From the NCBI GenBank assembly GCA_016618085.1, contig JABLTG010000093.1, positions 16,156 to 80,155 of the forward strand: DNA of 64,000 bases. The letters run 5' to 3'. Below, one piece after another: positions 36,915 to 64,000 of the stretch. Made by a program: the position numbers and the translations under genes. How positions within the stretch are numbered: the first letter of the stretch is position 1; the number at the start of each line of letters is the position of its first letter. Under the pieces are notes generated by a model. The model was given only the letters and a program-made list of their open reading frames with translations. It ran no database searches and was not told the DNA's origin. The stretch is from Neovahlkampfia damariscottae (lineage: Eukaryota > Heterolobosea > Selenaionea > Neovahlkampfiida > Neovahlkampfiidae).

Positions 36915-37832
36915 AATCTCCGGTTGACTCTTTGGACGATCAACCTTTTTGAAGCATTAATCTTGTTCCGAATTTCAGGGTAAATCACATCATTGATGAA
37001 TTTCCAATGTCGTAAGATCTTTTTCCTTGCTTTGACAGGATTTGAATACCGTTTTGAAGTTTTCTTTGAAAATGGTGATCTTCCAAACATCAATTCAAAT
37101 GGAGATACCTCTAAACCATTGAGTATCCTGGTATTCATTGAGAACTGAACTAAAGGAATACTATTTGTCCAATTCTTCTCTTTCAGATTTTTCATTGTTG
37201 ACTCTAAAACTGATCTGCAATATCTTTCTGAAATTCCATTTGCTTGATGATCAGCTGTCAACTTGAAATGACTGTTGTATAGAATTTTCTCAGCCATTAA
37301 ACTGTTCAATCGATTTAAAAAGTTTGTACCTTGATCAAATTTCGTTTTACTTGGTATTCCAAAGTTTTTATAAATCTCGAATAGGAATTCACTTGTAGTT
37401 TTTGCTGTAAAGTCCTTCACACTCTTTAACCAAACAAATTTCCTGAAAACATCTACAATGACAATCACAGCCCTACCTTCTGCTTCTTGATTCATGAATA
37501 ACACATCTCCTACAATACTCTCCATTGGATAATCTGCAATGTGGCTTTTAAAAGGAGCACGTAAAATATAAGGACTATTTGTGTATTTTCTACATCTATC
37601 ACATGATAACACAACTTCACGTACTTTATTGTAAGGAATTGATTCCCAAAGCAGTTTTTATAAATCTGTAGGTTTGATTTATTCCGTAATGGTTCTCATT
37701 GTGAATAAGTTTAATTAATTCAATCTTTGATTTCTCATTTTTCTTCCTCTTCAACTTTCTTATTTTAGATGCAATAGATTCTTCAACTTTGAATTCACAA
37801 CATCGAGATAACAAATCAGCAATAACATTCAT
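36911..37832 (-). pseudogene. Integrase zinc-binding and DDE core domains
   Basis: 37832-37626 starts with NVIADLLSR and carries the HH part of the zinc finger (HNENHYGINQTYRFIK). After a frame change near 37650 the CC part follows (LSCDRCRKY). The core shows all three catalytic acids: D in VGDVLF, D in KFDQGTNF and E in SERYCRSVLE. The core itself is open over 230 residues. Confidence 0.85.
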
Positions 37833-37871
37833 TTATCTGGATTTATTTTTAAGTGATTCTCTGTTAACGCA

Positions 37872-38949: not shown

Positions 38950-39055
38950 AACCTTGATGTAAATAAAACGAAGTGTTTCTTGGTCTAAACTCTGAATATT
39001 TTCAAAATAATCTGATGATGAAGCTTTATTTACTTCATCTATTGCTGGTTGTTAA

Positions 39056-40218: not shown

Positions 40219-40444
40219 TTTCTGAAATTTAACTCTTAATTCAGTAGTTCAAATAAAAAATGTAACGGTATATGCAAATTAGGTGAAATGAATTGTTTTT
40301 TTCCATTTCTCATTGAATTTTAAAAACGGGAAATTGATGTTTTTTCTTCGGGTAAATTTTATGAACACCTTTTTGAATGATTTTTTTGTTGTTCTCAGCT
40401 GATCAGGATTCGAAAACCGTTATAGGTCAGTTCGAAAAAACCCC

Positions 40445-40561
40445 TGCTTGCTTTATTTTACCCAAATTAAGAGAAATCACAAATGAAAAAAGAAAAATTC
40501 AAATTTATTTCTTTGTTAATTTTTTCAAAAATAATTCTTGAAATTCAAACTCTTCCATTTC
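40445..40561. repeat. Parent copy of the 117-bp inverted repeat
   Basis: This is the 3' end and flank of the coiled-coil gene. Its reverse complement occurs at 31185-31301. The outer edge on the retroelement side is TGCTTGCTTTATTTTACCCA. Confidence 0.85.
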
Positions 40562-41653
40562 TTCTTCTTTTTGGTCTAATAATTGTTTAATTGATTCAAT
40601 TTCATTGTTTAACTTTTCCTTTTTTGTTTTTAATCTCTTCAATTCATTTCTGACTTCATTAGATGTAAAAGGGGAGTTTCTCTTCAGAACTTCAAAAATC
40701 GTTTCATTTTCTCTTTTTCTCTTATTTGAATATGAACCAGTGGAAGAACGTCTGACAGAAACACTAGGTGTAGTTGCATTTATTTCCATAGAATGTTCAA
40801 TTGAAGATAAACTTTCTGGTGAGTTTGGTTGTGGCGAACTATCATTATTGGAAATAATAAAGTGAGGAACATTTGTTACTATTTTTGGATCATGTTCTTT
40901 TGTAATTAAAACTTGTTCGACTAAATGATGTAAATTAAATTCTTCATCTTTTTCCTCAGGTGAGAGAAGTTCACTTGTTGATATTTTTGTTCTGACTTTT
41001 GTTTGGTTTTCAATGTCACGTAAATCATCATTTGCATCTCTATTTTGATTTTGATTGAATAATTTATGTGTATATAACTTTCTAGCTCTGATATTGTCAT
41101 CTTCAATGGCTTGTGTTGGTGACTTTGGTCTTTGAAGACGAGTCTTCATTGGAGTTGAAAACATTGAATCTGATACTGTTTTAACAACTTTAGGACTTGT
41201 TTCAGGTGACACTTTAGCTCTTCCATTTTGTTGTGGTTTTGGTTTTACTTGTTTAATTTCATTGTATGGTTTTTTCAAAATTGCTGTTGAATATTTTTTA
41301 TAATTGACTTGATAACCATCCCAACCACTTTCTATTAACTTGAAACCTGCTTCAACATCTTTGTAATTTGGGTCTTCAATATCAAGCTTATCTCTGAAGG
41401 CTTGAATGAGTTGTGTTATAACTTTGAATAATTTTTCAAATTCATCTTTTGAGGATATAATGTTACATCTTTTCTTTGTTGATTTCTTTCCTACCACTAC
41501 AAATGGTATTTTATCGTTTTTATTTGGTTGCAACGAAAGGTAAATATAAAACAAGCCTTGGTCAAGTCTACACATGGTTTTGGTGGTAATAAGAGGTGTT
41601 AACCCGGATCTAGAAATAGTTATTCTATAGTTTTTTGTCTTTGGACCTTCCAT
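40505..41653 (-). CDS. Unknown coiled-coil, probably nuclear protein
   Basis: A 382-residue single-exon protein. The N-terminal 130 residues form a compact region (ITISRSGLTPLITTKTMCRL; PFVVVGKKSTKKRCNI). A basic, serine/threonine/proline-rich disordered stretch follows, with KRKREN as a possible nuclear signal. A C-terminal coiled coil comes last (LKRLKTKKEKLNNEIESIKQ). I recognise no family; a DNA- or chromatin-associated role would be a guess. A host-type ATTGG box lies at about 41708, some 55 bp upstream. Its last 17 codons are duplicated in inverted orientation at 31185. Confidence 0.7.
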   Translation of the reverse strand: MEGPKTKNYRITISRSGLTPLITTKTMCRLDQGLFYIYLSLQPNKNDKIPFVVVGKKSTKKRCNIISSKDEFEKLFKVITQLIQAFRDKLDIEDPNYKDVEAGFKLIESGWDGYQVNYKKYSTAILKKPYNEIKQVKPKPQQNGRAKVSPETSPKVVKTVSDSMFSTPMKTRLQRPKSPTQAIEDDNIRARKLYTHKLFNQNQNRDANDDLRDIENQTKVRTKISTSELLSPEEKDEEFNLHHLVEQVLITKEHDPKIVTNVPHFIISNNDSSPQPNSPESLSSIEHSMEINATTPSVSVRRSSTGSYSNKRKRENETIFEVLKRNSPFTSNEVRNELKRLKTKKEKLNNEIESIKQLLDQKEEEMEEFEFQELFLKKLTKK

Positions 41654-41810
41654 TGTTTATTTGATGCTTTTGCTCCTACCAAACGAAAACTGTTGTTCCA
41701 GCTGTTGATTGGTCGGTTTTGGTTAGAACTTTGTACTATGAATATATTGTCATGAAATTTCTCTTTTGCACAGCAAAGGAAGTGTGTTATTTGAAAAATG
41801 AACTTATTTT

Positions 41811-42251
41811 TTATTGAGTTTTACATTTTCCTTTTTTTTCAACAAATTTTTTTTCATGTTTCAGTTTTGTATGTTTTATCAATGCTTCAATATGTTTTTG
41901 ATTCTGTCCATGATCTGAGTATCCTTCTACAAATGAAAAAATGCTTCTAATTGGAATACAAAAAGAACCACAAAAACAACAAACATTTGTTGAAGAGGAT
42001 GTTGCTTGAAAAACACAACTTGATTTTTGATCATCTATGCATTTGAATGATATGACGTCTAACCACTTTAAGGTTGGTGTATAAAATTCTGCAACAACGT
42101 CTGATTTTTCAATTAATTTTTGTTCATCTTCATATTCTGATTTTAAATAAAAATTTGGAAGTCCAATAATAGCCAATTCAAGCTTTTCGATCACCTTCTT
42201 TTTGTTGTTTTGTGGAAAAGTGAATTCATAAGTCACAGTTGGGTGTGGCAT
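41811..42251 (-). CDS. Hypothetical protein with cysteine-rich centre
   Basis: About 146 residues from the ATG at 42251 (MPHPTVTYEFTFP). An in-frame ATG at 42299 exists, but the CCAAT box at 42277 lies between the two, which favours the downstream start. A cysteine-rich segment (STNVCCFCGSFCIPI) precedes a motif EGYSDHGQNQKHIEALIKH and a basic tail. I do not recognise the family. No membrane segment or signal peptide is present. Confidence 0.6.
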   Translation of the reverse strand: MPHPTVTYEFTFPQNNKKKVIEKLELAIIGLPNFYLKSEYEDEQKLIEKSDVVAEFYTPTLKWLDVISFKCIDDQKSSCVFQATSSSTNVCCFCGSFCIPIRSIFSFVEGYSDHGQNQKHIEALIKHTKLKHEKKFVEKKGKCKTQ

Positions 42252-42481
42252 GTTCGGAAATTTATTGAAAAGCTTTATCCAATGAGAAATAAGGAACATT
42301 CAAATAGATTAAACACTCTTTTGAAACGAAAGTTAAAAATACTGAAACACTGTGATTGAAAAATATAATTATTTTTTTTTCGATTAGGAAGGGTATACGA
42401 AATTAAGAAATATCAATTTCTAAATTTAGATCATCCAATTATAAGCAATCCTCAAATTGACACAACAACGAAAAGGTGAGC

Positions 42482-44245
42482 ATGAAGGAAATCTTGATAC
42501 TGATTTTCTGCCTCATTTTTAAAGCCACAACAAAGTGTGCGTATGCCGAAAACTCCATGATACAGGAAGCAATAACGGAGTTCAACAACGAAACCTATGT
42601 TGAAATTAATTTCTTTGTTTATGACACCAAATTCACTGAAGGATTTGGGTTTAGCATGGACTTAAACATGACAGATAATTCAATATTCACTTGTGTCTCA
42701 CAGATGACGCTACACGAAACTTCAATTTTTGAAGGAAAAAAAAGCAACAACAGTTGTGTTAAAAAAAAAATCCATGGATCATTATTTGAATCATTAGACG
42801 GAGTAATTCACTACTCTTGTTCAATTCCACTTCAAAAATTTCAAAAATTCAACTACATTTTAATTTTGCGATCCTCAAATACTTGGAATCCAGATTCTGA
42901 TTTTGATACAATCCAAAAAATTATCCGACCTATAAATTCATGGAAACCTTGTATTGTAGATACACTTAGTGGAAGAGGAAGATTTGACAGCAGATTTTGG
43001 TATCTTACAGTCATCACATCAATAATTTTTCTTTTCACTTTTTTATCATTAATTTATTACCGAGATGAACAACCTTTAAAATCAAGGAAATACTTACCAT
43101 TTATTGCTTTATTATATAATTATTCATTGTTACTGTCTGATTTTTTTCAAAATTTATTTTCTAACGAAATCAGATTAACTTATGGTTGTTTAATCAATAT
43201 TTTCATTACACATAGATTTGGAAATATAGTTGCATCATTACCAGTTTTAGTTTTATTCAGATATTTTTATTTGATTCATTTAACGAAACAAAAGAAAATC
43301 ATTTACAACAAAACGAAAGAAAAACTAGAGATTTCAACATTCACTGTATTTTTAGCGAAATATTTGAATTTATCAACTTCATTACTTGGAATTTTTATTT
43401 TTATAATTATACTTTATATTGTAACTTTATTGTTAAATATTATTCCATTTTTTTTTTATCAAACTGATTGCTTTGAAATTGCAAATAGTTTATTGTATAA
43501 AATACTCACAGGTTTCACATCTATATTAACTGAATCATTAATTGTCATCGTTTTGATTGTAGATTTAATGATGAATATTAAATCTATTTGCAGAAAGAAA
43601 TGTGGATTTCTGAAGTTCTATTTCATTGATGATATTTATTATTTCAGAATTGAATCCATTATGGTATGGACTGTTTCCATGTGCTTCACATTTGTGCCAT
43701 TATTTGATGATTACTCACGGTTACTCAAACAAATATCTTCAACCATTCTTTGGTATTTCATGTTTTTCACACAAGTTGTATTTGTTCTCTTGGTCACTTC
43801 ATTAAGATCTTGGAAAATTAGAAAAAAGAACAGCATTGAAAAAGAAGAAATTGAAGAAATATTTGACCCTGAATATGATATCATATTACAGGCTTTCTTG
43901 AAATTTTGTGAATCCGAATTCACATCAGAATATATCTATATCAAAAGAGATATTTTGAAATATCGAAAGAATATGAGAGATAGAGCATCAATTGGTAAAG
44001 AAATTGTTGCTTTGTATCTCAATGGTCGTCAATCTATACTTGAAGTAAATGTCATGGAATCCATGTCTTCGGATTTTAAACAAAGAATTCAATGCGGTGA
44101 TTTCGCTGAAGATTTATTTGATAAAATTGAAAGAGAAGTTGATTGCACATTGAAAGATTCCTTTAGAAAATTTAAACTTTGTAAAGAGTATCTGATTGTA
44201 AAAAAAGTTCTTGATTTTCAAGACAAAGATTATTTTAAATTATAG
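42482..44245 (+). CDS. Seven-transmembrane receptor-like protein with C-terminal RGS domain (paralogue)
   Basis: Paralogue of the gene at 4341-6104, with the same layout: signal peptide (MKEILILIFCLIFKATTKC), a glycosylatable extracellular domain, the shared box CIVDTLSGRGRFDSRFW, seven hydrophobic segments, and an RGS domain. The RGS core reads FLKFCESEFTSEYIYIKRDI, LYLNGRQSILEVNVMESMSS and DSFRKFKLCKEYL. The start is set by the signal peptide. The loop after the first membrane helix (YYRDEQPLKSRKYLPFIALL) is conserved between the two. Together they probably form a receptor family that speeds GTP hydrolysis on G-alpha. Confidence 0.8.
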   Translation: MKEILILIFCLIFKATTKCAYAENSMIQEAITEFNNETYVEINFFVYDTKFTEGFGFSMDLNMTDNSIFTCVSQMTLHETSIFEGKKSNNSCVKKKIHGSLFESLDGVIHYSCSIPLQKFQKFNYILILRSSNTWNPDSDFDTIQKIIRPINSWKPCIVDTLSGRGRFDSRFWYLTVITSIIFLFTFLSLIYYRDEQPLKSRKYLPFIALLYNYSLLLSDFFQNLFSNEIRLTYGCLINIFITHRFGNIVASLPVLVLFRYFYLIHLTKQKKIIYNKTKEKLEISTFTVFLAKYLNLSTSLLGIFIFIIILYIVTLLLNIIPFFFYQTDCFEIANSLLYKILTGFTSILTESLIVIVLIVDLMMNIKSICRKKCGFLKFYFIDDIYYFRIESIMVWTVSMCFTFVPLFDDYSRLLKQISSTILWYFMFFTQVVFVLLVTSLRSWKIRKKNSIEKEEIEEIFDPEYDIILQAFLKFCESEFTSEYIYIKRDILKYRKNMRDRASIGKEIVALYLNGRQSILEVNVMESMSSDFKQRIQCGDFAEDLFDKIEREVDCTLKDSFRKFKLCKEYLIVKKVLDFQDKDYFKL

Positions 44246-44578: not shown

Positions 44579-44650
44579 GGGAGTTTGGTCTAGTGGTATG
44601 ATTCTCGCTTTGGGTGCGAGAGGTCCGGGGTTCAATTCCCCGAACTCCCC
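44579..44650 (+). tRNA. tRNA-Pro(UGG)
   Basis: A 72-nt cloverleaf: acceptor GGGAGTT/AACTCCC, anticodon stem CTCGC/GCGAG with loop TTTGGGT (anticodon UGG), T-arm CCGGGGTTCAATTCCCCG. It is identical to the copy at 47789-47860 and followed by a T-rich stretch. Confidence 0.95.
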
Positions 44651-47788: not shown

Positions 47789-47860
47789 GGGAGTTTGGTC
47801 TAGTGGTATGATTCTCGCTTTGGGTGCGAGAGGTCCGGGGTTCAATTCCCCGAACTCCCC
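47789..47860 (+). tRNA. tRNA-Pro(UGG)
   Basis: Identical 72-nt copy of the tRNA at 44579-44650. The 45 bp before it are also largely conserved (TTTTGGTATTTAATTCC; GAATTATAACTGG). A run of T residues follows and can serve as a Pol III terminator. Confidence 0.95.
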
Positions 47861-51562: not shown

Positions 51563-52660
51563 TTAGAGAATATTTGAATTCAATTTTTTTTTTTGATAAA
51601 ATAAAACATATGCTGATGGTGATTGAATATCTCTAACATTTCTCACAATTGAATCATCAAAAACAATCCATTCATTATTTTCATTTTTACAGCTTGAAAC
51701 ATAATGTCCACCTTGTAAATTACCAAAATGATGAATTACAGATTTCAACTCATATTCATCATGAACTTGATCATTTATTGAATACTGATTTAAATGTAAA
51801 TTCAATGGTAATTCTACATTTTGATTCAATTTCTTCAAATCATAAGTAAACCTACATAAATGAAGAATCAAGATATTTGGTGTTTTTTTCAACATAACTT
51901 TTTTCATTCCATCCGTTTTTGATTTACATTTTTCACAGTAAATTTGATTTGATTTGATCATTGATTCTTCTTTAAAAAAATTATCAAGACATTCATTGAC
52001 TGTTGAAAAATGTTGAGAATCCATCAATAACGGAAGTGAGATATCAAGAAATTTCTCTTCTTTTATTGTTTCATTTTTACATTTCAAGCATTTGGTGATG
52101 TTTTCAAATTTCCCACCAAATATTTTTTCAATTTCTGTTTCTGATGCATTTGAGTGTTTTAAGTTTAAATTCACGTGTTCCAAGAAGAATTTCAAAAATT
52201 CATGACTATCATGCTGTCTTATAGAATGTAAATAATTTCAATAATTTTACCCGAAATCTTCGAAAAATGGATAATGTTTAATAAATGTAGAATGAAAGGC
52301 TTTTGGTGAAATAGAAAAATATGAATTTTTGAATTGTTCGATTAAATTATAGAATTCTGTTAGTAAATCATCTTTTTGAATTGTTTCTTCGTTGAAAATT
52401 TTTGTGAACTGTGGAATATTGATTAGGCACTGTAAACTGGAATTCATAAAACACTTTATAAAATAAAAATGAAATAATTTGTTACTGTATTTCCTAGGTT
52501 TATCAGACCGATTTTTTTGGAATGAACAAGGTTTTTTTTCAAAGTATTTGTCAATTGGTTCAGTCTTCGAAGAGTTGTTTGGTTCATTGAAGTTGTTTGA
52601 TTGGATAATTAAATGTTCTGGAATTTGAAGTCGAACATCGAATATATAGCACAACATCAT
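51563..52660 (-). CDS. Ubiquitin-specific protease (USP), compact, with a possible frameshift
   Basis: Deubiquitinase of minimal length. A 32-nt intron joins LGNT to CFMNSSLQCLI, giving the catalytic cysteine box. A second (about 52247 to 52213) joins EDFG to QHDSHEFLKFFLE. Zinc-ribbon cysteines are present (CLKCKN; CEKCKSK), and the His box is GGHYVSSCKNENNEWIVFDDS. The N-terminal part, from the ATG at 52660, is one base out of frame with the cysteine box. The T7 run at 52512-52518 is the likely place: one more base would give KKIGLINLGNTCF. It is either a broken gene or a sequence error. Confidence 0.75.
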
Positions 52661-52675: not shown

Positions 52676-54062
52676 AATGAAATAAATTTATATCAAAAGG
52701 AACTCATGTTCAAAATTGTTTCTTTTTCTAATTTATCTTTTTCATTCGTGTATTTCTAGAAGAAACATTAGTCGGACAATTTTCAAATGTTGCAGTGTTA
52801 ATTTTCATTGAAGTTAAAGGTCTGGTGTCCAAAACCATTAAGTAAGTGGGGGGCCTTTCCCGAATTGACATATCAAGGTTTTTTCATTCTGATGAGCTGA
52901 GAACATCGGTTTTCCTCTCCACATGACCATCTTGATTTTTTTCATCAAAAAAAAGGAATTTTCCCGTTTTTCAAATTCTCCAATACCTAAATTTTTTCTT
53001 CCCATTTCTCCTCAGAAGTCAAAATTTAGTGTTTCATTAAAAGAAAAAAATTTTACACCCAATAAAAATTCTCCATAATTCGACCAATGATGAACGTAAA
53101 ATGGTCCAGAGGTTTGAACGTTTATTTCTTGTTAAAATGAAAAAAGTATTCCATTTATCCTCTCACATTACTAATTTTTTTGTTTCCTTTTTCAATTCAA
53201 ACTGAACCATATTTTTTTTTTTCATGGAATGTTGAAAAAAAAATAGCTAAAAAAATAAAAAAAAACATGCAAGGATTGATTAAGAATGGAGTTGGTGAAA
53301 CCAAGATTAAGTTGATCGTATGATGTAATGACGCTGAAGTTCTTGAACTATTTAACACCACATGTTCAGATGATTTAATGATATTTTGTTCCCTGCTGAT
53401 ACCCAAACCTTGTTACCAAGTAACACCAATTTCCAAATGCATCAAGCTGTTCTAAACAGTATTTCATCAGCAATGAAGAAAATTCTCAATATACATGTCA
53501 AAAACATCAACAAATTGCAGATTTAGTTTTGATCATGGCAATCACGGTCACAATCCTTGTTTTTAGTAATGAGTTTGAAAAGAAATGATGGTTTTTGGAC
53601 AATGAATGTATTGACTTACAGGTGATCATTGCTCATAAATTGACCAAGACCAAAATCACTTTATTGTGTAATTTGGAAATTATAATATGGAAGACATAAA
53701 AATTACTTTAAATAGTAAATATAAAATGGTCGAATTTAAAGATATCAAAAGATGTTGTCAAAAATGTTATTTTACTTTGAGACGTGAAATTGCAATATTT
53801 GAAAAAAATAAAGGTATCTTTAGGATCTGGGTATATGGAAATTATTAAGTTACAAAGATATCAGAAGAATAAGATTTTATGCTTGGTTGATATCGTTCAT
53901 ATTAACACAAACAACAGACTATAGTTATAAAATAATTAGACAACTATTAGTATCTATTTTAAAGAACAAACATTTATTGGGTTAGCAAATTTATTATTGA
54001 AAAATAAAAAAAATAACAAAAACAAAGAACAGTGATTTACTAGATAATTACGTTAAATTTAA
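52676..54062. other. Long intergenic stretch, mostly degenerate
   Basis: No complete gene is supported. Two CCAAT boxes (about 53061 and 53084) precede an ATG at 53101 that opens only about 34 codons. From 53460 to 53990 there are scraps of reading frame in several phases, as expected for old decayed sequence. Confidence 0.4.
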
Positions 54063-54093
54063 ACATCATTTTTTTTTTCATTTAATAAATTCA

Positions 54094-54327
54094 TTAATTT
54101 TTGATTTGTTCTTCCTGTTCATTTAGTTTAATTTCATGAACGGATTTTGTTCGATTTAAATCTTCTTTGAGATCATTGATATGAATCAATTCAATGGATG
54201 AACCACAACAATTTGATTTCTCAATTCTTCGTGTGAATTCGACTCCAGCTGTGATCATAGGTGCTAAAAGAGATGACAAACATGTCAGTGAACTTAATAT
54301 AATCAAAACTACAATTTCTGATTGCAT
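54094..54327 (-). CDS. Small virus-type membrane protein
   Basis: A 77-residue protein with an N-terminal membrane segment (IVVLIILSSLTCLSSLLAPM). It is followed by a basic, cysteine-bearing juxtamembrane motif (RRIEKSNCCGSSIEL) and a charged tail. Short proteins of this shape are frequent in amoebal DNA viruses. It has the element-specific box TTAATATATAGA right before the ATG, not a host CCAAT box. A frame-broken duplicate lies at 33581. It may be the leftmost gene of the viral block. Confidence 0.6.
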   Translation of the reverse strand: MQSEIVVLIILSSLTCLSSLLAPMITAGVEFTRRIEKSNCCGSSIELIHINDLKEDLNRTKSVHEIKLNEQEEQIKN

Positions 54328-54945
54328 TCTATATATTAAACAAATAATAAAAGTTATTTTTCTTTAAAATTTCATCTTTTTTAAACTGTCAGTGATATAA
54401 TCCATGTTTTTTTATATTTTTTTCTTTTCTTTGTCTTCAGGTGTTGTGCATTGCCATAATAAAAATCATAAACATTCTATTGTTGATACTAGAGACAAAT
54501 ATTATTATTTGGAGAAGTAAATTTTATGTTTCAAAAAGTTTCATTAAAAAAACTGATAAACAAAAAAATGAGGTAATTAAATCAAAAAATTTCAACATTA
54601 AAAAATTTCAACCAAGAGTAAGTAAGAAAGAGAACGAAGATGTAAGCTCAAACCCAAATTTCTTTGTTGCATGCTTTGTTAACTTTGTATTTTAAAGAAA
54701 GCTTCAAGTTTTGTATTAATAAAATTTTAATTATTTAAGAAAGTTCGTGTAAATTTTGTTGTGATGTGCTTTGTTCTTTTTTTTTTTTGAACTGAATTTC
54801 GGAATTAGGTGAATTGGAAAGTGAAAAACGAAAAATGATTGGATCACGGAAATAAAATTTTTGCGGGTATTTTTTTTTGAGCCAATCAGAAATCATCAGA
54901 AATTCCTATAAATAGGAGACTTTTTGGATAGAAAACAAAATCAAA
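54328..54945. promoter_or_regulatory. Region before the 101-residue gene, with host-type promoter
   Basis: A GCCAATCAG box at about 54879 and a TATA box in CCTATAAATAGG at 54905-54916 lie before the ATG at 54946. An open stretch at 54441-54695 lacks an ATG and looks like chance or an exon remnant. Nothing else is supported. Confidence 0.5.
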
Positions 54946-55251
54946 ATGAAGTGGAGAGAAATTGATGAAAAAAAGCTTGCATTAAAAAATGGAATTAAGT
55001 TGTCCATCAGAAAAAGTGATGAAATTTTCGAAAGCAATGGAAAGTACAATGTAACTATCTTGGTAGTTGAATACCCAAACAATCTCCAAGGCTCTGGTGT
55101 AGATGTTGTCGTTAGTTGTGGAGGAAATGAATGCACTTATCTCTCAAATACCTTTTGGCATGGTTCTAATGTATTTGAAATTCCACTTTGTTCTAGATGG
55201 AAAAAAGATTATGTAAAAATTGATACTTCAAAGTTTAATGATATTAAATAA
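54946..55251 (+). CDS. Small hypothetical protein with host-type promoter
   Basis: 101 residues, soluble, mixed beta pattern (KYNVTILVVEY; GSGVDVVVSCGGNECTYL). No family is recognised. The well-placed CCAAT and TATA boxes argue that the start is real and of host type, although it lies between genes with the viral promoter motif. Confidence 0.5.
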   Translation: MKWREIDEKKLALKNGIKLSIRKSDEIFESNGKYNVTILVVEYPNNLQGSGVDVVVSCGGNECTYLSNTFWHGSNVFEIPLCSRWKKDYVKIDTSKFNDIK

Positions 55252-55347
55252 ATATTGTTAAATAATTTTATTTTAAATTCTATATATTTGATCGATCATT
55301 TACTTTAAAACTATAAAAAAATTATGAAAATATTTTGATTGCATTTT

Positions 55348-55569
55348 TTAGAAACATTTAAAAAAATCTTCCAAGTTTTTGTCATGAAGATAGTACTTAA
55401 ACTGCTTTGTGAACTTTTTTCCGAGCAATAAATTCATTTCTGAAACAAATTGTTTTCTCTCATCTTCAGTTTGTTTTTTCAATTGTAACACAAAAAAATT
55501 AAATAAATTTGCATTATTAACAATGTTGTAATTTGAAACATAATAAATTCCGCTAGATAAATAATCCAT
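55348..55569 (-). CDS. Small hypothetical viral-type protein
   Basis: 73 residues from the ATG at 55569 (MDYLSSGIYYVSNYN), preceded directly by CAAATATATA. Helical and basic at the C-terminus (KKFTKQFKYYLHDKNLEDFF). No family is recognised. It starts just after the ATPase fragment on the same strand. Confidence 0.5.
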   Translation of the reverse strand: MDYLSSGIYYVSNYNIVNNANLFNFFVLQLKKQTEDERKQFVSEMNLLLGKKFTKQFKYYLHDKNLEDFFKCF

Positions 55570-55580
55570 TATATATTTGG

Positions 55581-55988
55581 TCAATATTTTATTTTGAATG
55601 GTTTGTATTTTTCAGGTGCTTTTCCAAAATAATATTTTTCATTTTTTTTTGCTGTTGTGTCAACCAAAATAAATGAAAAATCTTCTTTTGTGTTATCATC
55701 AATAAATTCTTCAATTTCATTCTTTTTTTTATCAAGCATAAAGTTTTTACGAATCGCATCTATTGTATGTTCATCAGTTACATTAAATGTAATAAAAAAT
55801 CTTGTGCATTTTCTCAATAAAGGAGGAACAGCATAAATATGTTGTGTGATGAAAATAATAGTTATGTTTGGGTGTCTGTATAAAGAAATAATTTTTTCAA
55901 ATTTTGAACTTTTAAATTGAACAGAACCAATACAATCATCAAATACAACAAATGCAGGAGGAGGATTTTTGTCAGTATTACTTTTAGT
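55581..55988 (-). pseudogene. C-terminal fragment of a packaging ATPase (A32/FtsK-HerA superfamily)
   Basis: The open frame starts after a TAG at 55989-55991, without an ATG. It begins with the Walker B region (PPPAFVVFDDCIGS), then the sensor segment SLYRHPNITIIFITQHIYAV and the C-terminal lobe KCTRFFITFNVTDEHTIDAI. This matches the second half of viral DNA-packaging ATPases. The Walker A half is absent. Upstream lies the divergent promoter and start of another ATPase, so the gene was cut at this point. It differs in sequence from that neighbour. Confidence 0.7.
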
Positions 55989-56024
55989 CTAATTTGAAAT
56001 AAATTTATATTCTTATATTATAGA

Positions 56025-57044
56025 ATGTTGTCAATTGGTCAAAGAATAAACAAAGATGCAAAAGCCATAGCTTATATAAGAGGTGGAGAAAATGATGGCA
56101 ATGTTGTTTTTTTAAATAACGATAATTTAGATGCAACTTTGGAAGAAAAACAAAAATATGAAAAATTAAAAAATAACAAAAATATTGATATTTATGAACA
56201 TCTCACCGAAACTGAATTAAGAAAATTAATGAAACAAGTTTGTGGTCAATCAATAAGATTAACATCAAAAGATTATAAAATACTCAACAAATTATTAACA
56301 GAAAATATTGAACCTCAAGATGAAAGATTAAAAAAAATGTATGATTTATTGAAAAGTGAAATTCAATCAAAACCTGAAGAAAATAAAGAAATTATTGTTT
56401 ATGATGGATTTATACAACAAATACCAAGGAAAAATGATGATGGAAATATAATTTGGAGACAATATGTTGCCGCACCTTCAGAAAGTGGAAAATCAACTTA
56501 TTTAGCGTCTTTAATTAAAGAATACAAACAATTAAAACCAAAAGCAAATATTTATTTATTTTCTGATACTCCAAAGGATGAAAAAATTGATAGATTGGGA
56601 ATTATAAGAATTTTATTAGATGATGAATTAATTGAAAATCCAATTGAAGCTGATGAATTAATGGGACCGACTGAAGCTGACCATCATTCTCTTGTAATTT
56701 TTGATGATATTGATAGTATTATTGATAAAAAATTATTTAAACAAGTTTCTGCTTTAAGGGACCAAATTTTACAAAAAGGAAGACATCATTTTATTAGTTG
56801 TATCGTAACCAATCATAAATTAACAGATTACAAAAATACTGCAATTATCCTTAATGAAGCGCAATAAATCACCTTATTCCCGAAAGCAACCAGCAAACAT
56901 CATTTTCATTACATATTATTCACATATTGTGGAATGTCAAATGATGAAATTGATAGAGCATATAAATTACCAACAAGATGGATTACAATATCAAAATTAT
57001 TTCCAAGATACATAATGTATCAGTCTGGTATCTATGTGCTTTAA
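56025..57044 (+). pseudogene. Viral P-loop ATPase with one in-frame TAA
   Basis: A viral DNA-packaging type ATPase. The N-terminal 150 residues are helical and charged. The P-loop is VAAPSESGKSTYLASLIKEY, the Walker B LVIFDDIDSI, and the sensor region QKGRHHFISCIVTNHKLTDY. After LNEAQ an in-frame TAA occurs at 56865-56867. The same frame goes on with ITLFPKATSKHH, then DRAYKLPTRWITIS and stops at 57044. The downstream part is conserved in such ATPases, so the TAA truncates a formerly longer protein. The start follows TATTATAGA. Confidence 0.75.
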
Positions 57045-57092
57045 ATTGAATACATAGATTTTATTAATTTTATTTTATTATATTAATATATA

Positions 57093-59191
57093 ATGAAACA
57101 AAAAACTTCAAAATATGTTGTTATGTCGTTGGGTGGGGGTAAAAAATTGAATGATGCTTTAAATAATTTAAACGCTAAAAGGCATTACAAAAATTTGAAA
57201 AAATATTATAACGAAGCAATTAAAAATAAAGTCATTAAAGATGAACTTACATTGGAGAATTTAGAATTGTTTTATGATGTTTTAAAAAAAGAATTGAAAA
57301 AACCAAATTTGACTGAAAAAAGGAAAGATGCTTATGAAGAAATAGATGCTCAATTAAAAGTATTGATACCTGAATTAAAAAAAATACAAAAAGAAGACAA
57401 TGAAGAATATGAAAAAATGAAAAATCAAATGGGCAAGCTGGGGAATGAAAAAAATGCAAAAGAAACAATTGCAAATGTATTAAAAAATCAAAAAAACAGA
57501 AAGGAATTAAAAAAACTGATTGGAGAAACAAAGGCAAAAAAACAATCATAACAATCAACTAAAAATGGTGATTCAGATGAAGAAACAATTGGTGTTCCAA
57601 AAACAAATGATTTAACAAGTCTTGAAATGTTAATAGAATATAATAATATTCTTGGAAAAATAAAAAATATTCATGATGACGCGGTAGACGAGTTTCATTT
57701 ATTTGATAACATGATAACAAATTTTGAAAAAGAAAAAGATACTAATAACAAAAAAGATATTGCAGAAAAAATAGGAGAACAAGATTTTGTAATAAAGGAA
57801 AAAATTGAAAAAATGGATGGATTGCTCACTGAAGTAAATAATAATGTTGATAATGTAGTTAAAGGACTCATTAAAGATGTTGATGATATGGTATCTAATA
57901 GCGCTTTTTCTGAAAATGCTCCTAAAAGTATGTCTGTCCCTAATGAAATTATAGATTTTGTGGATGAATTTTCAAAAATTATTAAAATACCTGTTGCAAC
58001 TGGGGGACAAAAAAAACAATATAAAGAACACTTAATTTTCATTAAAAATGTATTGCAAAATTTTAGAAGAGACTATTATGAACCTGTAAATCTTGCTTTT
58101 GAAAAATTAAAGTTAGTATTTGAAAAAAGAAGAAATGATATGGTTCAATATGTTAAAGAAGATGATAATGACAACAAAAAATCTAAAATAGAACCAGAAA
58201 CAAACTTGACAGAAAATCAACTTAAAAACATAAAAGAAACATTACCGAAAGAAGATTTAATAAAAGTTATCAGGAGAAGACATCCAAATCTGAAAAAAGA
58301 AGATTTAAACAGTATGTTTGTTGAAGATTTAATACAAATCAATCATCAATTGGGAGTGAATTTATTGGATTTAAATATTTTAAAAGTTCCAAAAAATGCA
58401 ACAAAAGAGGAAAAAGAATTAATTGAAAATCTTGAAAATATTAGAAGACAAAGAGAAGTTGAAGCAGAATTTAAAAAATTAAAATCACAAATTGATAATG
58501 ATGAAGTAAAATCGGAAAAAGAAAGAACTGACCAAAATTTAAAAACTGCCGCAAAATCTTTGATTAAAAAGCAAACATACAAACCGGATAGAGTTAATAC
58601 AAAAAAAATGGAAAATAAAAAACCAAAAGATGAAAAAAAATTGAAAGAGCAGTTGCAAAGATATTAAAAGATGACACTCCAGTTATCAAATTAAACGATG
58701 AACAAATTCAAGGAATGGGTAAAGACGGAGCTTTAGCCCGAGCGGACCCTCTCGGTAAAATGAAAAAATCAAATCCTTATATGGAATTCTTAAAAGATTT
58801 TAAAGAAAAAAATGCAGGAATGTATAACAACAAGGAAATGCTAAAACAAGCAGGACATGCTTGGAATATGTTAAAGGGAGGCTGTGATTGTCAAATAGAC
58901 ATTGAAGGTGGTTCGTCAATGAAAAAGTCAAAAGATAACAGAAGAATGAATTACCAAGATGAGAAAAAATTAGATTGGAAAATTGCAAGTAATATTGAAC
59001 CTGAGCAACAAGATGGAATTTATGATTTTCCAAATGAATTCAAAGATGAAAAACAAGGTTTTATACCTACTATGGAAGTTGAAAATAATTTAGCTAACAG
59101 AATCAAACAAAATATTAGAAATCCAAATGAAGGAGAAAGAAAGCTAGCTTTATTAATGCATCAAAGAAAGAAAAAACAATTGGGAAATTAA
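57093..59191 (+). pseudogene. Long coiled-coil viral protein, interrupted
   Basis: Starts MKQKTSKYVVMSLGGGKKLN right after TTAATATATA. An in-frame TAA at 57549-57551 separates AKKQS from QSTKNGDSDEETIG. The same frame runs on to 58667. There an A8 run (58633-58640) shifts the frame; one more A would lead into ERAVAKILKDDTP and the last part (58715-59191), which includes ALARADPLGKMKKSNPYMEF and GGCDCQIDIEGG. The intact protein would be close to 700 residues, lysine-rich and mostly helical. It may be a virion core or scaffold protein; I recognise no named family. Confidence 0.6.
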
Positions 59192-59209
59192 TATATATAT
59201 TAATTATAT

Positions 59210-60325
59210 ATGAATACAGAAATATTTGATAACTACATTGTTGTAAAAAAACCAACTTCAATTGATGATAAAGAAATGGATGTTATATCAATTGGAACTA
59301 TGGAGCAAACAAAAGATGATTTTAGTGATTGTAAAATACTGCAAGAATTTAATAATTATTTGCAGGTGTATGATAAAGAATGTGATTTAATTGTCAATAT
59401 TTACCATTACAACAAAAATAATATACATTATGGTTTGTTTCTTCATATTTACCCAATTGATGTTGTTGAAAAGGTTTTGAATAATTTAAATAATCATTTA
59501 ACTGTGTGCTGTGATTGTTTGCTTGATAATGATGGCAATGAAATTAAAATTAATAATTATCCTGATGTTCTTGGTTTGACATCTGATGAAATATTGAAAG
59601 GTGGAAATTTATTCAATTCAGTTGCAGAACTGTTTAAAAATGGATTTAATAGGGTGAAAAGCTTAATTACAAATCCTATCAGACTTGACACGCCACCTTA
59701 TTATCGAACTTTTTTGGAAAACTTTGGAAATTTATCAATTGAAAGTATTTTAATTTGTAAAATACCAATCCAAGAAACATTTAATGTAATTTTAAATGCT
59801 GTGAGTTTTGAACAATGGGATAGAACCAAATCAAAGTTGAATTACGACTCTATGTATCATCTTTTTATGATATGTAAATTAGTTTCTGGTCAATATGTGA
59901 GGGTAGAAAAGAACGAAATTTTAAGCATCAATTTAGTTGAACCATCAAGTTATCAAAAAGCAAAATCAATTCATCTTACTCATTATCGGGAAGTTGTCCC
60001 TTTTAATCTCAATCAAATGCACCAGAGAGCATTGAATGCAGTTGGAAAAGAAAGATTGTATTTATATCGTGGAGATTCAACAAATTGTCAATTATTTATT
60101 AACGATTTACTTGAAAATTCGGGATTGATGAATGACGAAATTAAAGGATTTGTGATGCAACGGGCTGGAGACTTAATTAATTCGTTACCAACATTTGCAC
60201 AAAAATTTATTCAAGGAGTTACAGATGTATCTGGTTTCTTTAATCATGTGTTATATGGTGCTGGTTTAATGCAAAAATATAAGGTTAAAAATAATAAATT
60301 TGGTGGAAGTTTAATGTATTTATAA
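59210..60325 (+). CDS. Viral NCQ-motif cysteine-peptidase-like protein
   Basis: A 371-residue intact ORF that starts directly after TTAATTATAT. The C-terminal half has YRGDSTNCQLFINDLLENSG followed by MQRAGDLINSLPTFAQKFIQ and GVTDVSGFFNHVLYGAG, a pattern I associate with papain-like/LRAT-type folds in protist DNA viruses. The cysteine in NCQ would be the nucleophile and a histidine near SIHLTHYREV a possible partner. The N-terminal half is unassigned. Roles could include virion maturation or membrane modification; both are inference. Confidence 0.6.
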   Translation: MNTEIFDNYIVVKKPTSIDDKEMDVISIGTMEQTKDDFSDCKILQEFNNYLQVYDKECDLIVNIYHYNKNNIHYGLFLHIYPIDVVEKVLNNLNNHLTVCCDCLLDNDGNEIKINNYPDVLGLTSDEILKGGNLFNSVAELFKNGFNRVKSLITNPIRLDTPPYYRTFLENFGNLSIESILICKIPIQETFNVILNAVSFEQWDRTKSKLNYDSMYHLFMICKLVSGQYVRVEKNEILSINLVEPSSYQKAKSIHLTHYREVVPFNLNQMHQRALNAVGKERLYLYRGDSTNCQLFINDLLENSGLMNDEIKGFVMQRAGDLINSLPTFAQKFIQGVTDVSGFFNHVLYGAGLMQKYKVKNNKFGGSLMYL

Positions 60326-60396
60326 TTAATATTGTTGAATTAAATAATATTAAATGAAAAACTTTAATTTTTCTTAAAAATTGGAAATAAAATACT

Positions 60397-61430
60397 TTAT
60401 TTTTTAATCCATTCTTCAAAAAGTTCTTTTAGCTTTTTGAGATCCTTTCCAAAAAAAATGGGTTCAACTGAGTTTTTAGTTGTTTTATTCGTACATGACG
60501 ATTTAAGAATTCCATTTTCATAGTTTTTCTTGTTGATAGTAAAGTTATTCTGTTTTCCCCAATACCCGAATTCTTTGATTTAGTTTGGTGACAAAATAGC
60601 TATATATTCAAAAATTTTTTGAATTGATTCAATATCCCCTGAATGCTTTTGTGAGAAAACAACAATAAAAAACAAAACATTATCCCTTCTGTAATAATCT
60701 GATAATTTCAAATCTCCAGATAATTGAATCTTTGCAGAACCTGACTTAGAAGTAGTTGAAACTTTACACTCAAAATAAATAACTTTATCATTAATCAAAA
60801 TGTAAGCATCGTCTTCATATCAGATGTCACTTGGCTTTTGTGAATAAACCACTTTGTATGATTTACGTTCAGAAAAGCTTGATGAAACATGATTTTGCCA
60901 ACCTCATCATCAGATAGTGATTCTTTGTAATCCTTTATTGACTTCGCCATATTTTTTTCTTCATCTAGCTCAGATAAAGTTTTCAATTCTTGATCTGGGT
61001 CTTTTTTCAGGATAAACAGAGTAGTTTTAAGCTCATTAAGTTTGTCAATTAGTTTTTCAATCTCGATTTCAGTTTTTGTTATTTCTTCTTCAGTTTTCTT
61101 AATCTCATTTTGTTTACTACTGTCGTCTGTCATTTTGACCAGTTGTTCTATTTTTATTCTACGTGGTCCAATCAAAATATTGAAAACAGGTGTTTTTTTT
61201 CTTAAAAAATTCAACATTTTTTGATGTTTCTTTGTTTTCAAATGAAGATATTTACCACTTGTTGTGTATTTGCCACCACAAAGTTCACAAACATGCTTTT
61301 CTCTTGCTTTTTCATTCAGTTTTTCTTTATTTAACTGTTTATAATTTTTCATGTATTCTTGTATGTTTTCTGTTTTTCTTTTCGGAATTTCAATTGGTTC
61401 GCTTCTTGGTATGTCAGTGTTATTTTCCAT
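60397..61430 (-). pseudogene. C2H2 zinc finger joined to PD-(D/E)XK-like nuclease, interrupted
   Basis: From the ATG at 61430 (preceded by TTATATAGA): a basic lead (MENNTDIPRSEPIEIPKRKT), a zinc finger HVCELCGGKYTTSGKYLHLKTKKH typical of large DNA viruses and their relatives (CxxC...HxxxxxH), then a coiled coil. A one-base shift at about 60818 separates HKSQVTSD from YEDDAYILINDKVIYFECKV, a D...ExK pattern of restriction-like nucleases. The frame then meets TAA at 60580-60582 and continues (IKEFGYWGKQNNFTINKK) to 60399. It may have acted in DNA processing or homing. Confidence 0.55.
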
Positions 61431-61652
61431 TCTATATAATAATAGTATATAATTTAATATATTTAATGAAGTTTGACAAAATTTATTTGGAGCTGTAGAA
61501 AAATTTGATTCATATTTTGTTTTCCCATTCTGTATTATAATATTTTTAATTTTAAACACCAATAATAATTTCATAATGTCTAAACATAAGGAGATTGAGA
61601 GGTATTGACAAATAAAATTTTATTTTATATTTCATTCAAATTTCTGAACACT

Positions 61653-62507
61653 TTAATTGTCTTCCGAATTAAGCAAAGCATAATCACGGTGATTTGGATG
61701 GGACATAGGCTCGGAAACAGAATTTAAATTTTTAGATTTCTTTGAAAAGTAAGCAACAAAACCTTCACCCAAAAAAATAATTAATCTTGCCAGTAATTCA
61801 AAAAATCCAAGCATTGCTAAAATCCAAGAAACTAATTCATTAAATGAATATCTTGAATATTCTGTTTTTTCAAAATATTGACGATTTGGAGTTAATCCGA
61901 AACCGATAATATTTGAGGAATTGCCATAAAATTTCGGATTTTGGACTCCATTTATTTTAAAAGTATATGTTCTCACTTCTTCATATTTTAGAAAGTCCAA
62001 ATTGAATTTCTTTTTCAAGTAATGTCTTATTGTCACAGAAATTTGTAAGTTTAAGAAAAATTTAGCTCCAACAAGAACCCCAGATTGCATAATATCTGAA
62101 ATTCATTTTTCTAAAGTTGAATTATTTCTGTTTGCAACTGTTAGAAGTATTGCACTTGCATCAGTTTGGAAGAGCCATATCAATTCCAAATGGTCAGGTG
62201 TAAAAAAGTATTGGGTGCACATTCTCGTATTATTTTGTGTTCCACGGTATTTCCAATTCAAACAATATTTTTCTTTTGGAGGATTACATATCTTTGGTAT
62301 AACTTCATATTGTGGTTGAGCGGAACAAATAAGAATATCTTTTGGAAATAAAAAGTCTTTTAGACTTTTAAATTCTTTTAGTTCTGTTTTCCAAATCGTA
62401 TTTTTACTATCTTTTGCTTCTTCATATATTTTTATTTGCCAAATAGAATAGACAATCCACACACCAAGAAAAAAGCAGTGAATCAACACTTTCCAAACAA
62501 ATTTCAT
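61653..62507 (-). pseudogene. Two-segment membrane protein of host type, one in-frame TGA
   Basis: From the ATG at 62507: a membrane segment (VLIHCFFLGVWIVYSIWQI), a lumenal cysteine-containing domain (ILICSAQPQYEVIPKIC; KEKYCLNW), then TGA at 62103-62105. The same frame continues (ISDIMQSGVLVGAKFF) to a second membrane helix near the C-terminus (LVSWILAMLGFFELLARLII). A CCAATCA box 10 bp upstream of the ATG marks it as a host gene, although viral-type genes lie on both sides. The family is not recognised. Confidence 0.5.
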
Positions 62508-62525
62508 AAATTTGTAGCCAATCAA

Positions 62526-63170
62526 AATCAGAATTATTGGAAATAAAAAAATGAAAAAAATCTCTTATAATTTAAGGATTACTACTTGGATAATCAATTC
62601 AAAATAAAAATTAATTTGATTGGTTATTTTTTCAAACTCGAGTTTCAATTTTCCTTCGTTTCTGTTGGACAATAATTTTTCCGAAAAATTTTGTTGTTGA
62701 CATTTAGTTGCCAGAAATACTCCCAATAATTGTTGCCGACATTCAGTTACCAGTTTTTATTGTCTGGTCATTTGGTAGGTTGGTCAGCTCTTAAAATCCT
62801 TTCCTGTAAAATTGACCATTTTTTAAAGGTTTCAGATTTTCCTAAAACCACCTTACCATTTTACCACGAATTTTATTTTACCAGTTTTTATTTTCCGGTC
62901 ATTTGGTCAGGTGGTCGGACCACTTAATCCTTCCCTGTAAAATTAACCATTTTTTCAAAATTTTATAAAATTCCAAAAACCACCTTACCATTTTACCAGT
63001 TCCTTATCTTATTCCTTTTTGTTATAATTTAATTGGTAAAATGGTAATTGTAAATTAAAGTAATAAATTAAATGTTTCAATTAGATTGGAGTTATTAAAT
63101 TGCTCAAGGCGAAGCTGGAAGAGAAACCGTCAGGTTTTGAATTTCCCCCTTTTCGTAAATAAAATTTATT
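62526..63170. repeat. Intergenic tandem and inverted repeats
   Basis: A unit of about 130 bp occurs twice in tandem (about 62747-62876 and 62878-62999). Each unit starts TTACCAGTTTTTATT and ends CCACCTTACCATTTTACCA. A shorter 40-bp echo precedes them (GTTGCCAG/GTTACCAG). At about 63033 the reverse complement TTGGTAAAATGGTAA follows, giving an inverted pair. No coding region is visible. Confidence 0.7.
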
Positions 63171-63176
63171 TTATTA

Positions 63177-63838
63177 CTACGAGTCCTGCCACACACCAAA
63201 ATTTGCATCTGCTGAAACATCTGGTATTGTGTATATTCTATTACTTGCTGGTTGTGCAACATTTAATGTTGTTGTAGTTCCTGTTTCTGCTGGTTGAAAA
63301 ACCATTTGATTGCTTGGAGAATTTACATTCAAATATCCTTTAATGAAAACATTTACAGTATTTGTCGAACCACTTCCTAATTCAAATGGTAAAGGAGTTG
63401 ATGTACCATAATCCAGCCTTCAAATCTTCCTCTTGAATTTGATCTCATAGACATACAAAGAACTCTATCACTACTAATGCCACTATTTTGTATTTCAAGT
63501 TGGCAATCAGTTCCTCCAACAATTCTAACATTTCTCATAGCTACCCCAGATGATAATTCTAATGGATTTGATCCAATACCAGTTACACTGTTTGTCTGAA
63601 TAGAATTAGCGCCAGTCACATTATTACTATCATCAATTGTAATTCCTGATGATTGAACTCCTCTGCTTCCGCCATCACCTCTCACAATTGTATTATCTGT
63701 GATTGTTGAAGATGATGAAACCATATTTGGAACCGAAACAGTTGTTGCTGTTAAATTTGTTATAATTGCTGAGTTAATTGTTGCATTTTCACAAGTAAAA
63801 TCAGGTAAATTGTTAATATTTCCAATTGATTTAGACAT
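63177..63838 (-). pseudogene. Fibre/tail-like virion protein, frameshifted
   Basis: From the ATG at 63838 (preceded by AATATTATATA): a beta-rich, T/S/N/G-rich protein of about 220 residues with the repeated phage- and virus-fibre pattern (TITDNTIVRGDGGSRGVQSS, GITIDDSNNVTGANSIQTNS). The first frame ends at 63377. A one-base shift near 63405 leads to a matching end in another frame (YGTSTPLPFELGSG; RIYTIPDVSADANFGVWQDS). The latter is the usual close of such structural proteins. It is likely a surface fibre for host attachment. Confidence 0.65.
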
Positions 63839-63882
63839 TATATAATATTTGATTTGAAATTAATTTGTGATCATATAATATA

Positions 63883-64000
63883 ATGTCAATTTTTGATAGT
63901 CTTTCACAATTCGGTTCTGTAATCGGAGATAGAGTAAATTCAGCTTTTGATCCAAAAAATCATGGTTTTCTTGATGGCAATTGGGATGATTTCCAACTTG
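63883..64000 (+). CDS. Start of a viral-type gene running off the window
   Basis: ATG at 63883 directly after CATATAATATA, divergent from the fibre gene. The visible 39 residues are MSIFDSLSQFGSVIGDRVNS, then AFDPKNHGFLDGNWDDFQL. No stop is present before the window ends. Possibly a virion protein by position; the family is not recognised. Confidence 0.5.
   Translation, partial: MSIFDSLSQFGSVIGDRVNSAFDPKNHGFLDGNWDDFQL

What the first reader, a model, noticed from the sequence alone, without database searches (positions are those of the whole stretch)
54094..64000. Integrated, partly decayed DNA virus related to Polinton-like viruses or small nucleocytoviruses
Packaging-type ATPases, a fibre-like protein, an NCQ cysteine-peptidase-like protein and a zinc-finger/nuclease lie together in an amoeba-like genome and share a promoter motif not seen at host genes. 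The combination does not match any single well-known element that I can name. The element extends past the right edge, where a capsid gene would be expected.
Basis: partly seen in the sequence, partly recalled or inferred. Interest (0 to 1): 0.88.

Follow-up and report, generated by a model that had tools for sequence, protein, structure and literature searches.

The report
Virophage remnant inside another provirus
The DNA is not one decayed virus but two: a piece of a virophage (a small virus of the kind that preys on giant viruses) lies inside the remains of a different integrated virus in a protist genome, and relatives elsewhere in that genome suggest the two virus types have swapped working parts.

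Summary
The viral insertion is real, but it is two elements, not one. Window 54055-55990 and 63197-64000 are flanks of one provirus ('family 2': A32-type ATPase, membrane protein, fibre). Between them, 55991-63196, lies a truncated piece of another ('family 1'), whose terminal repeat ends inside the family 2 fibre gene. Family 1 is a virophage: capsid and penton of its relatives in this genome match Sputnik (profiles, E 8.5e-37 and 4e-20). The window copy lacks capsid, penton, protease, integrase and replicase, and its ATPase and coiled-coil genes are broken. The contig ends at the window edge. Each family's capsid gene has 33 matching pieces genome-wide. Family 1 copies carry an rve integrase and a Tlr1-like polymerase-helicase (polymerase part by motif only); family 2 capsid genes lie near relatives of both. 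One virophage's integrase is closer to a family 2 integrase (67%) than to another virophage's (50%), suggesting module exchange. TATA precedes 39 of 49 viral and 0 of 32 host start codons. New variant of a known kind.

The parts
54055..54339 (-). Family 2 left piece: small membrane-protein gene (ORF 54094-54327)
   Evidence: 87% nt identity to C235 copy L002; homologous to small ORFs that follow A32 in other family 2 copies
54340..55568 (.). Family 2 left piece, rearranged middle; ORF 54946-55251 (+) has no relative in the loci held; ORF 55348-55569 (-) is 34% identical to a stretch between A32 and the membrane gene in C235
55569..55990 (-). Family 2 A32-type packaging ATPase, C-terminal part only, with stops
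   Evidence: 96% nt to C235; PF04665 E 2.3e-9 with 1 TGA, 1 TAG, 1 TAA
55990..55991 (.). Left junction: family 2 A32 gene joined to the region upstream of the family 1 ATPase
   Evidence: Follows C235 up to ...TTTTAGTCT, then follows C214/C245/C188 copies; about 1 nt shared at the join
56025..56867 (+). Family 1 (virophage) packaging ATPase, Walker A PSESGKST; C-terminal part in another frame at 56854-57015
   Evidence: 61% (C251) to 95% (C188, C214) aa to relatives; alignment A6; one TAA inside the match
57093..59191 (+). Family 1 coiled-coil protein gene, broken into ORFs 57093-57551, 57627-58667, 58715-59191
   Evidence: Single ORF of 528 aa (C274) and 555 aa (C251); also split in C214
59210..60325 (+). 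Family 1 NCQ protein, 371 aa, intact; unknown function, conserved in this lineage
   Evidence: 8 relatives in the protein collection, best 66%; alignment A3
60795..61574 (-). C2H2-like zinc-finger ORF; stretch 61202-61464 conserved in C303, C214, C176 copies
61653..62525 (-). Two ORFs (145 and 140 aa) without relatives in the loci held
62606..63196 (+). Family 1 right terminal repeat (probably a terminal inverted repeat), with an internal direct repeat of about 120 nt; ends at CCACACAC
   Evidence: 55 matches genome-wide; 2.0-2.5 kb downstream of NCQ in C303, C214, C176 (1.0 kb in C105); opposite orientation 9 kb left of the capsid gene in C245; terminus shared with C303 and C132 copies
63196..63197 (.). 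Right junction: end of the virophage terminal repeat inside the family 2 fibre gene
   Evidence: Repeat homology to C303 ends at 63199, fibre homology begins at 63197-63198 (query base 1 = 63151); CCACACAC ends at 63196; uncertainty about 2-3 nt
63197..63838 (-). Family 2 fibre gene, N-terminal part, interrupted and frame-shifted
   Evidence: Synteny and homology to C280 copy
63883..64000 (+). First 39 codons of the 105-aa family 2 gene that diverges from the fibre gene
   Evidence: Fibre start and this gene together 82% nt over 405 bp to C280, where the ORF is 105 aa with a hydrophobic C-terminus

Best explanation
A virophage (family 1) integrated into the fibre gene of a resident provirus of another virus (family 2) in a protist chromosome. 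A later deletion running from the middle of the family 2 A32 gene to just upstream of the virophage ATPase removed the family 2 capsid genes, the virophage's left end, and its protease, penton, capsid, integrase and replicase genes. The remaining genes then decayed. Shown: that inner and outer parts belong to two different multicopy elements, the virophage capsid and penton of family 1 relatives, both junctions in the assembly, the shared orientation of the two family 2 flanks, and the broken genes. Inferred: the order of events, the nature of family 2, and the life cycle of intact relatives. That cycle would be: insertion by the rve integrase through terminal repeats; protein-primed copying by the Tlr1-like polymerase-helicase; transcription from TATA-like boxes by machinery other than the host's usual one, most likely a co-infecting giant virus; assembly of a virophage-type capsid with ATPase-driven packaging and protease maturation; attachment through the fibre.
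For: Left flank follows family 2 copy C235 at 87-96% and stops at 55990, where family 1 copies C214/C245/C188 take over. Right flank is fibre(-) plus the 105-aa gene(+), as in family 2 copy C280. Both flanks lie in the orientation of an uninterrupted family 2 copy, membrane gene - A32 - capsid candidate - minor capsid - fibre, all minus. The inner piece has the gene order ATPase - coil - NCQ of copies C274, C251 and C214, in which a divergent protease gene, missing here, lies on the upstream side of the ATPase. Capsid: Pfam Sputnik_MCP_1st 2.8e-18 and MCP_V20_C 3e-18, V20 8.5e-37. Penton: 3j26_N 4e-20. Contig C7 holds polymerase-helicase, integrase, NCQ, ATPase, protease (in two pieces, one stop), penton, capsid and fibre within 18.5 kb, 24003-42526.
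Against: Neither junction is confirmed by reads. The left terminal repeat and any target-site duplication are gone, so insertion by the integrase is not shown directly. The repeat at 62606-63196 could be a host repeat: it occurs in both orientations, also on contigs with no viral gene in my lists, and its distance to viral genes varies (1.0 kb from NCQ in C105, under 1 kb from the capsid gene in C132). Family 1 ATPase and protease gave no match over cut-off to named families.
Confidence: 0.8

Rival explanations
1. The window copy is a true recombinant virus, formed between a virophage and a family 2 virus before integration, rather than one provirus inserted in another.
For: The two families share fibre and membrane-protein genes and related integrases, so recombination between them is plausible. 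Contig C86 also has A32, family 2 capsid, integrase and a virophage ATPase piece in a row.
Against: The virophage terminal repeat lies between the two parts and cuts the fibre gene; the left breakpoint cuts the A32 gene; neither side keeps a full gene set in what the contig shows.
Confidence: 0.1
2. Assembly misjoin between two multicopy repeats.
For: Both families are multicopy, and the contig ends inside the viral DNA.
Against: No copy compared is identical to the window (best 96.2% for family 2 and 95.5% for a family 1 stretch), and the two sequences share about 1 nt at the left junction, whereas misjoins normally need a shared stretch.
Confidence: 0.07
3. One decayed Polinton-like or small nucleocytovirus element.
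For: Mixed gene content in one stretch and a shared promoter box.
Against: Each part matches a different multicopy element with its own capsid genes.
Confidence: 0.03

Closest known systems
Virophages sensu stricto (class Maveriviricetes in Roux et al. 2023, PMC9952930; outline and section 4 parts 1-2 read)
   Same: Capsid and penton recognised by profile; ATPase and adenain-patterned protease in the same block; rve integrase as in mavirus; about 18 kb
   Different: Replicase looks like a Tlr1-like polymerase-SF1 helicase rather than mavirus pPolB with a separate S3 helicase or PolA-S3 helicase; NCQ and coiled-coil genes matched no named family. No assignment to the seven virophage families was tested
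Endogenous mavirus-like elements (EMALEs) of Cafeteria, notably EMALE02 (PMC8547959, passages read)
   Same: Many integrated virophages in one protist; EMALE02 was interpreted as a virophage whose capsid module was exchanged for a PLV-like one; mid-GC EMALEs have a long primase/helicase ORF that may be a polymerase fusion; EMALEs interrupted by retrotransposons
   Different: Here the second capsid type goes with an A32 ATPase and looks nucleocytovirus-like, and a virophage is inserted in such an element
Tlr1-like PLVs and transpovirons (PMC11071308, passages read; PMC12721341, outline and section 15 read)
   Same: rve integrase (Tlr1) and vOTU-palm-SF1 helicase layout; motifs A, B, C at residues 486, 598, 693 with the first Asp of motif C missing (KTD), helicase motif I at 797
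   Different: Those elements are classed with PLVs; in family 1 this replicase accompanies a virophage capsid. The motifs were picked by eye with the papers and recall as guide, not by a profile; Pfam matched only the helicase part
Mriyaviruses / nucleocytovirus-like EVEs of Acanthamoeba (PMC11253617 outline, section 4 part 1 and passages; PMC11702301 outline and section 9)
   Same: Family 2 has an A32 ATPase and a capsid candidate with a weak Capsid_N link; an Acanthamoeba EVE has an unnamed capsid gene with rve integrase and GIY-YIG
   Different: No VLTF3 match in the genome (control silent); mriyaviruses are 35-45 kb with an HUH endonuclease, and a term search of the paper found no 'integras', 'endogen' or 'provirus'

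Membership tests
Virophage (Maveriviricetes), for family 1 | Virophage-like major capsid protein | tested here: met
   Relatives, not the window copy: Pfam 2.8e-18 and 3e-18; V20 6.1e-29 single and 8.5e-37 profile of 6 copies
Virophage (Maveriviricetes), for family 1 | Virophage-like penton (expected, not required) | tested here: met
   Profile of 4 pentons vs 3j26_N, E 4e-20, positions 7-355 of 357; no Pfam match for one penton
Virophage (Maveriviricetes), for family 1 | Virophage-like FtsK-HerA ATPase by HMM | tested here: inconclusive
   An ATPase lies near the capsid gene in C274, C104, C252, C245, C188, C214 and C7; only AAA_14 below cut-off; ICTV profiles not available
Virophage (Maveriviricetes), for family 1 | Virophage-like cysteine protease by HMM | tested here: inconclusive
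   197-204 aa protein with H, FDPYG and QTCGFHC in adenain order (pattern recalled); no Pfam match over cut-off and no PDB match
Virophage (Maveriviricetes), for family 1 | Genome 15-45 kb | tested here: inconclusive
   C7 gene set spans 18.5 kb and C274 about 15 kb, within the range, but complete ends were not read
Virophage (Maveriviricetes), for family 1 | Dependence on a giant virus | not testable with these tools
   Only the TATA-like promoter is suggestive
Polinton (Polintoviricetes), for family 1 | Polinton-type capsid | tested here: inconclusive
   Capsid matches virophage models only, at E<=0.1; whether Pfam holds a Polinton capsid model was not checked
Tlr1-like replicase | C-terminal SF1 helicase with N-terminal vOTU and pPolB palm | tested here: inconclusive
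   Helicase met: AAA_30 1.1e-7; palm and vOTU residues only by eye; PDB search of residues 1-770 gave nothing
Mriyaviricetes, for family 2 | VLTF3, RuvC, HUH endonuclease | tested here: inconclusive
   VLTF3: no match but the control did not ring; RuvC and HUH not tested
Nucleocytovirus-like capsid module, for family 2 | Capsid_N (PF16903) and A32 ATPase (PF04665) | tested here: inconclusive
   A32 met, 8.8e-15.

The most novel reading that the evidence does not exclude
Both families are variants of one modular satellite system of this protist: a shared chassis (integrase, Tlr1-like polymerase-helicase, fibre, membrane protein, TATA-like promoter read by the same unknown giant virus) that is fitted either with a virophage capsid set or with a nucleocytovirus-like capsid set, so that capsid type is an exchangeable cassette.
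Probability: 0.35. Interest if true: 0.75.

Novelty: new variant of a known kind. Interest (0 to 1): 0.55.

Why it matters
If right, one 20 Mb genome gives a natural series in which virophage and nucleocytovirus-like capsid genes meet on related replication genes. That bears directly on how virophages, Polinton-like viruses and nucleocytoviruses are connected, a debated question. It also gives a virophage lineage with a replicase otherwise described in PLVs and transpovirons, and a promoter box shared by two virus families and absent from the host genes examined, which makes the identity of a common helper virus testable.

Tried and rejected
Rejected: single-element reading (see rivals). NCQ as the capsid maturation protease: no profile support, a separate adenain-patterned gene exists in relatives, and the Cys is Tyr in 1 of 12 rows. 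A capsid gene to the right of the window: the contig ends there, and relatives place the family 1 capsid to the left of the ATPase.

Led nowhere: four scans of viral contigs with family 1 capsid (single and profile), NCQ and P0012 found no confirmed relative; a profile scan with A1 was not possible. PDB searches of ATPase (20), 404-aa protein (33, profile 76), polymerase part (71) and protease (74) gave nothing significant. PHROGs gave nothing useful. The third large protein search (polymerase-helicase, 1121 aa; only the 8000 candidates sharing most words were scored) gave 1 protein, P0023, a EukProt gene model 60% identical over 13% of the query. VLTF3 and Capsid_N genome searches were empty with silent controls.

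Literature searched. Nothing that I read in these described a virophage inserted into another DNA provirus of this kind, but only parts of nine papers were read, so this is no claim that it is not in print.

Rows left out: the capsid profile A2 used 6 of the 7 near-complete translations at hand (C104 left out). The ATPase alignment kept 4 rows after searches failed on stop codons in L021 and L014; L018 and L030 were dropped too without being tested.
Full report
SETTING. The window is contig C300:16156-80155 of a 20.4 Mb, 307-contig genome, and the contig ends at the window's right edge. Host genes to the left are eukaryotic (Kelch, RGS, BTB, ELMO, Sel1, DUF4116). The host could not be named. 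GC is 0.284 for 1-54054, 0.252 for 54055-55990 and 0.261 for 55991-60353.

TWO FAMILIES. DNA 56025-60325 has 35 matches in the genome, its own place included, the others at 66-96% identity; PF04665 (A32) has 22. Reading copies showed two different elements. Family 1 (C274 copy, L055) runs: GIY-YIG-like ORF (by eye), 288-aa ORF, NCQ, coiled coil, ATPase, protease, penton, capsid, fibre. Family 2 (C280 copies, L056) runs: membrane protein, A32 ATPase, 404-aa capsid candidate, 241-aa minor capsid-like protein, fibre. Capsid-gene matches number 33 pieces for family 1 (24 contigs by my count) and 33 for family 2 (22 contigs by my count); both lists contain open and broken copies and are lower bounds.

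FAMILY 1 IS A VIROPHAGE. The 547-aa protein of C303 matches Sputnik_MCP_1st (2.8e-18) and MCP_V20_C (3e-18) and the solved Sputnik capsid protein V20 (6.1e-29). A profile of six copies gives 8.5e-37. A profile of four pentons matches the Sputnik minor virion protein over nearly its full length (4e-20). The ATPase and protease lie in the same block but were not recognised by a named profile, so the criteria of Roux et al. (PMC9952930) are met for capsid and penton and open for the other two.

FAMILY 2. The A32 ATPase is clear (8.8e-15). The 241-aa protein matches DUF5901 (9e-10). The 404-aa protein has 14 relatives in the protein collection; one, P0004, just exceeds the Capsid_N cut-off (24.6 bits against 24, 2.1e-5), 2 of 14 match it at E<=0.1, the two host copies scanned do not, and PDB searches were empty of significant matches. 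I read it as a double jelly-roll capsid protein by its position and this weak match; that is an inference.

THE WINDOW COPY. 54055-54339 and 55569-55990 follow the family 2 copy C235 at 87% and 96%. At 55990/55991 the sequence leaves C235 and follows the upstream region of the family 1 ATPase seen in C214, C245 and C188, with about 1 nt shared. From there to 60353 it is family 1, 83-96% identical to the nearest copies. The ATPase frame stops early, and the coiled-coil gene is in three pieces. No match to the capsid, integrase, replicase or protease queries lies on C300. A repeat at 62606-63196 lies 2.3 kb beyond NCQ, as (2.0-2.5 kb) in C303, C214 and C176, and in reverse orientation 9 kb left of the capsid gene in C245; it has 55 matches in the genome, some on contigs without viral genes in my lists. 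Its end, CCACACAC, is shared with C303 and C132 copies, after which the flanks differ. Fibre homology starts directly after it, and the fibre is followed by a divergent gene whose first 39 codons match a 105-aa ORF in that place in C280 (82% nt over 405 bp). Both outer pieces therefore fit one family 2 element in one orientation, with a virophage piece inside its fibre gene. One insertion plus one deletion explains the whole stretch.

REPLICATION MODULE. C7 carries an rve integrase (PF00665, 4.5e-8) and an 1121-aa open stretch, cut at the locus end, with a C-terminal SF1 helicase (AAA_30, 1.1e-7). Upstream of the helicase are candidate vOTU residues (216, 308) and polymerase motifs at 486, 598 and 693, the last as KTD (picked by eye). 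PMC11071308 (passages) describes this layout and the loss of the first Asp of motif C for Tlr1-like proteins of PLVs and transpovirons. A PDB search of residues 1-770 found nothing, so the polymerase part rests on motifs. The genome has 52 matches to this protein and 43 to the integrase. In C274, C133 and C25 they lie next to the virophage fibre and capsid; in C7 on the other side, beyond NCQ. Near family 2 capsids they occur in C280, C47 and C243 (replicase) and in C280, C47, C86 and C306 (integrase); A32 and integrase lie about 3 kb apart in C143. Most of the DNA between was not read. Identity to the C7 replicase: C26 81% and C270 67% (family 1 by NCQ and ATPase); C280 58% and C47 58-62% (family 2); C274 (95.5 kb) and C133 42%, C25 43-46% (family 1). 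Less tidy: C243 (family 2) pieces 42-55%; C167 57% with a virophage capsid piece 15 kb away; C181 61-96% with a virophage capsid. Integrase pairs: C7-C280 67%, C274-C280 54-55%, C7-C274 50%. So the C7-type virophage integrase is closer to a family 2 integrase than to the C274-type virophage integrase. This suggests exchange of replication genes, but no tree was made and three sequences cannot prove it.

OTHER SHARED PARTS. Fibre proteins of C274, C303, C133, C104 and C25 match the C280 family 2 fibre at 48-56% over 176-199 aa (C7: 28-34% in short pieces). The small membrane protein of the window has relatives (36%) beside the fibre in family 1 copies C188 and C227.

PROMOTER. TATA within 20 nt of the ATG: 39 of 49 viral ORFs of both families, 0 of 32 host ORFs of at least 150 aa starting with ATG; shuffled viral upstream letters gave a mean of 21.2 and none of 500 reached 39. 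Within 40 nt the contrast to shuffles is weaker (43 against a mean of 34.2). Viral upstream DNA is 87% AT, host 70%. The ORFs and the pattern were chosen by me and many ORFs are homologues. TATATA motifs are reported upstream of genes in faustovirus, kaumoebavirus and asfarvirus (PMC5974111, abstract), and shared regulatory sequences of virophages and their giant viruses are noted in PMC8547959 (passages). A giant-virus reader for both families is a hypothesis.

NOVELTY. Endogenous virophages, integrated PLVs and module exchange are known (PMC10120064 outline and sections 8-9; PMC8547959 passages on EMALE02; PMC12220804 passages on replication-gene replacement). What is added is the combination of a virophage capsid with a Tlr1-like replicase, a second capsid type with related replication genes nearby in the same genome, and the nested insertion. 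I rate it a new variant of a known kind.

Noticed in passing
G000 C86:17168-21696: A32, family 2 capsid, integrase and a virophage ATPase fragment lie in a row: possibly a second mixed or nested locus.
   Followed up: no
window 59210-60325 and relatives P0015-P0022: The NCQ protein is an unnamed family with only 8 relatives found in the protein collection, on short contigs; very weak SUKH-like match below cut-off in short copies.
   Followed up: partly
window 52190-52260, minus strand: The ubiquitin-protease-like gene seems, by eye, to have a GT-AG intron of only about 33 nt.
   Followed up: no
window 2991-3062, 44579-44650, 47789-47860: Three tRNA-Pro(TGG) genes in one 64 kb window.
   Followed up: no
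C280:4228-5250 (L056): A metacaspase-like ORF (motifs by eye) lies between two family 2 copies.
   Followed up: no
genome contig ends: Many family 2 copies and terminal repeats lie within a few kb of contig starts or ends, from assembly breaks at repeats or a subtelomeric preference.
   Followed up: no
P0023: A EukProt gene model, organism not given, carries 142 residues 60% identical to the N-terminal part of the polymerase-helicase.
   Followed up: partly
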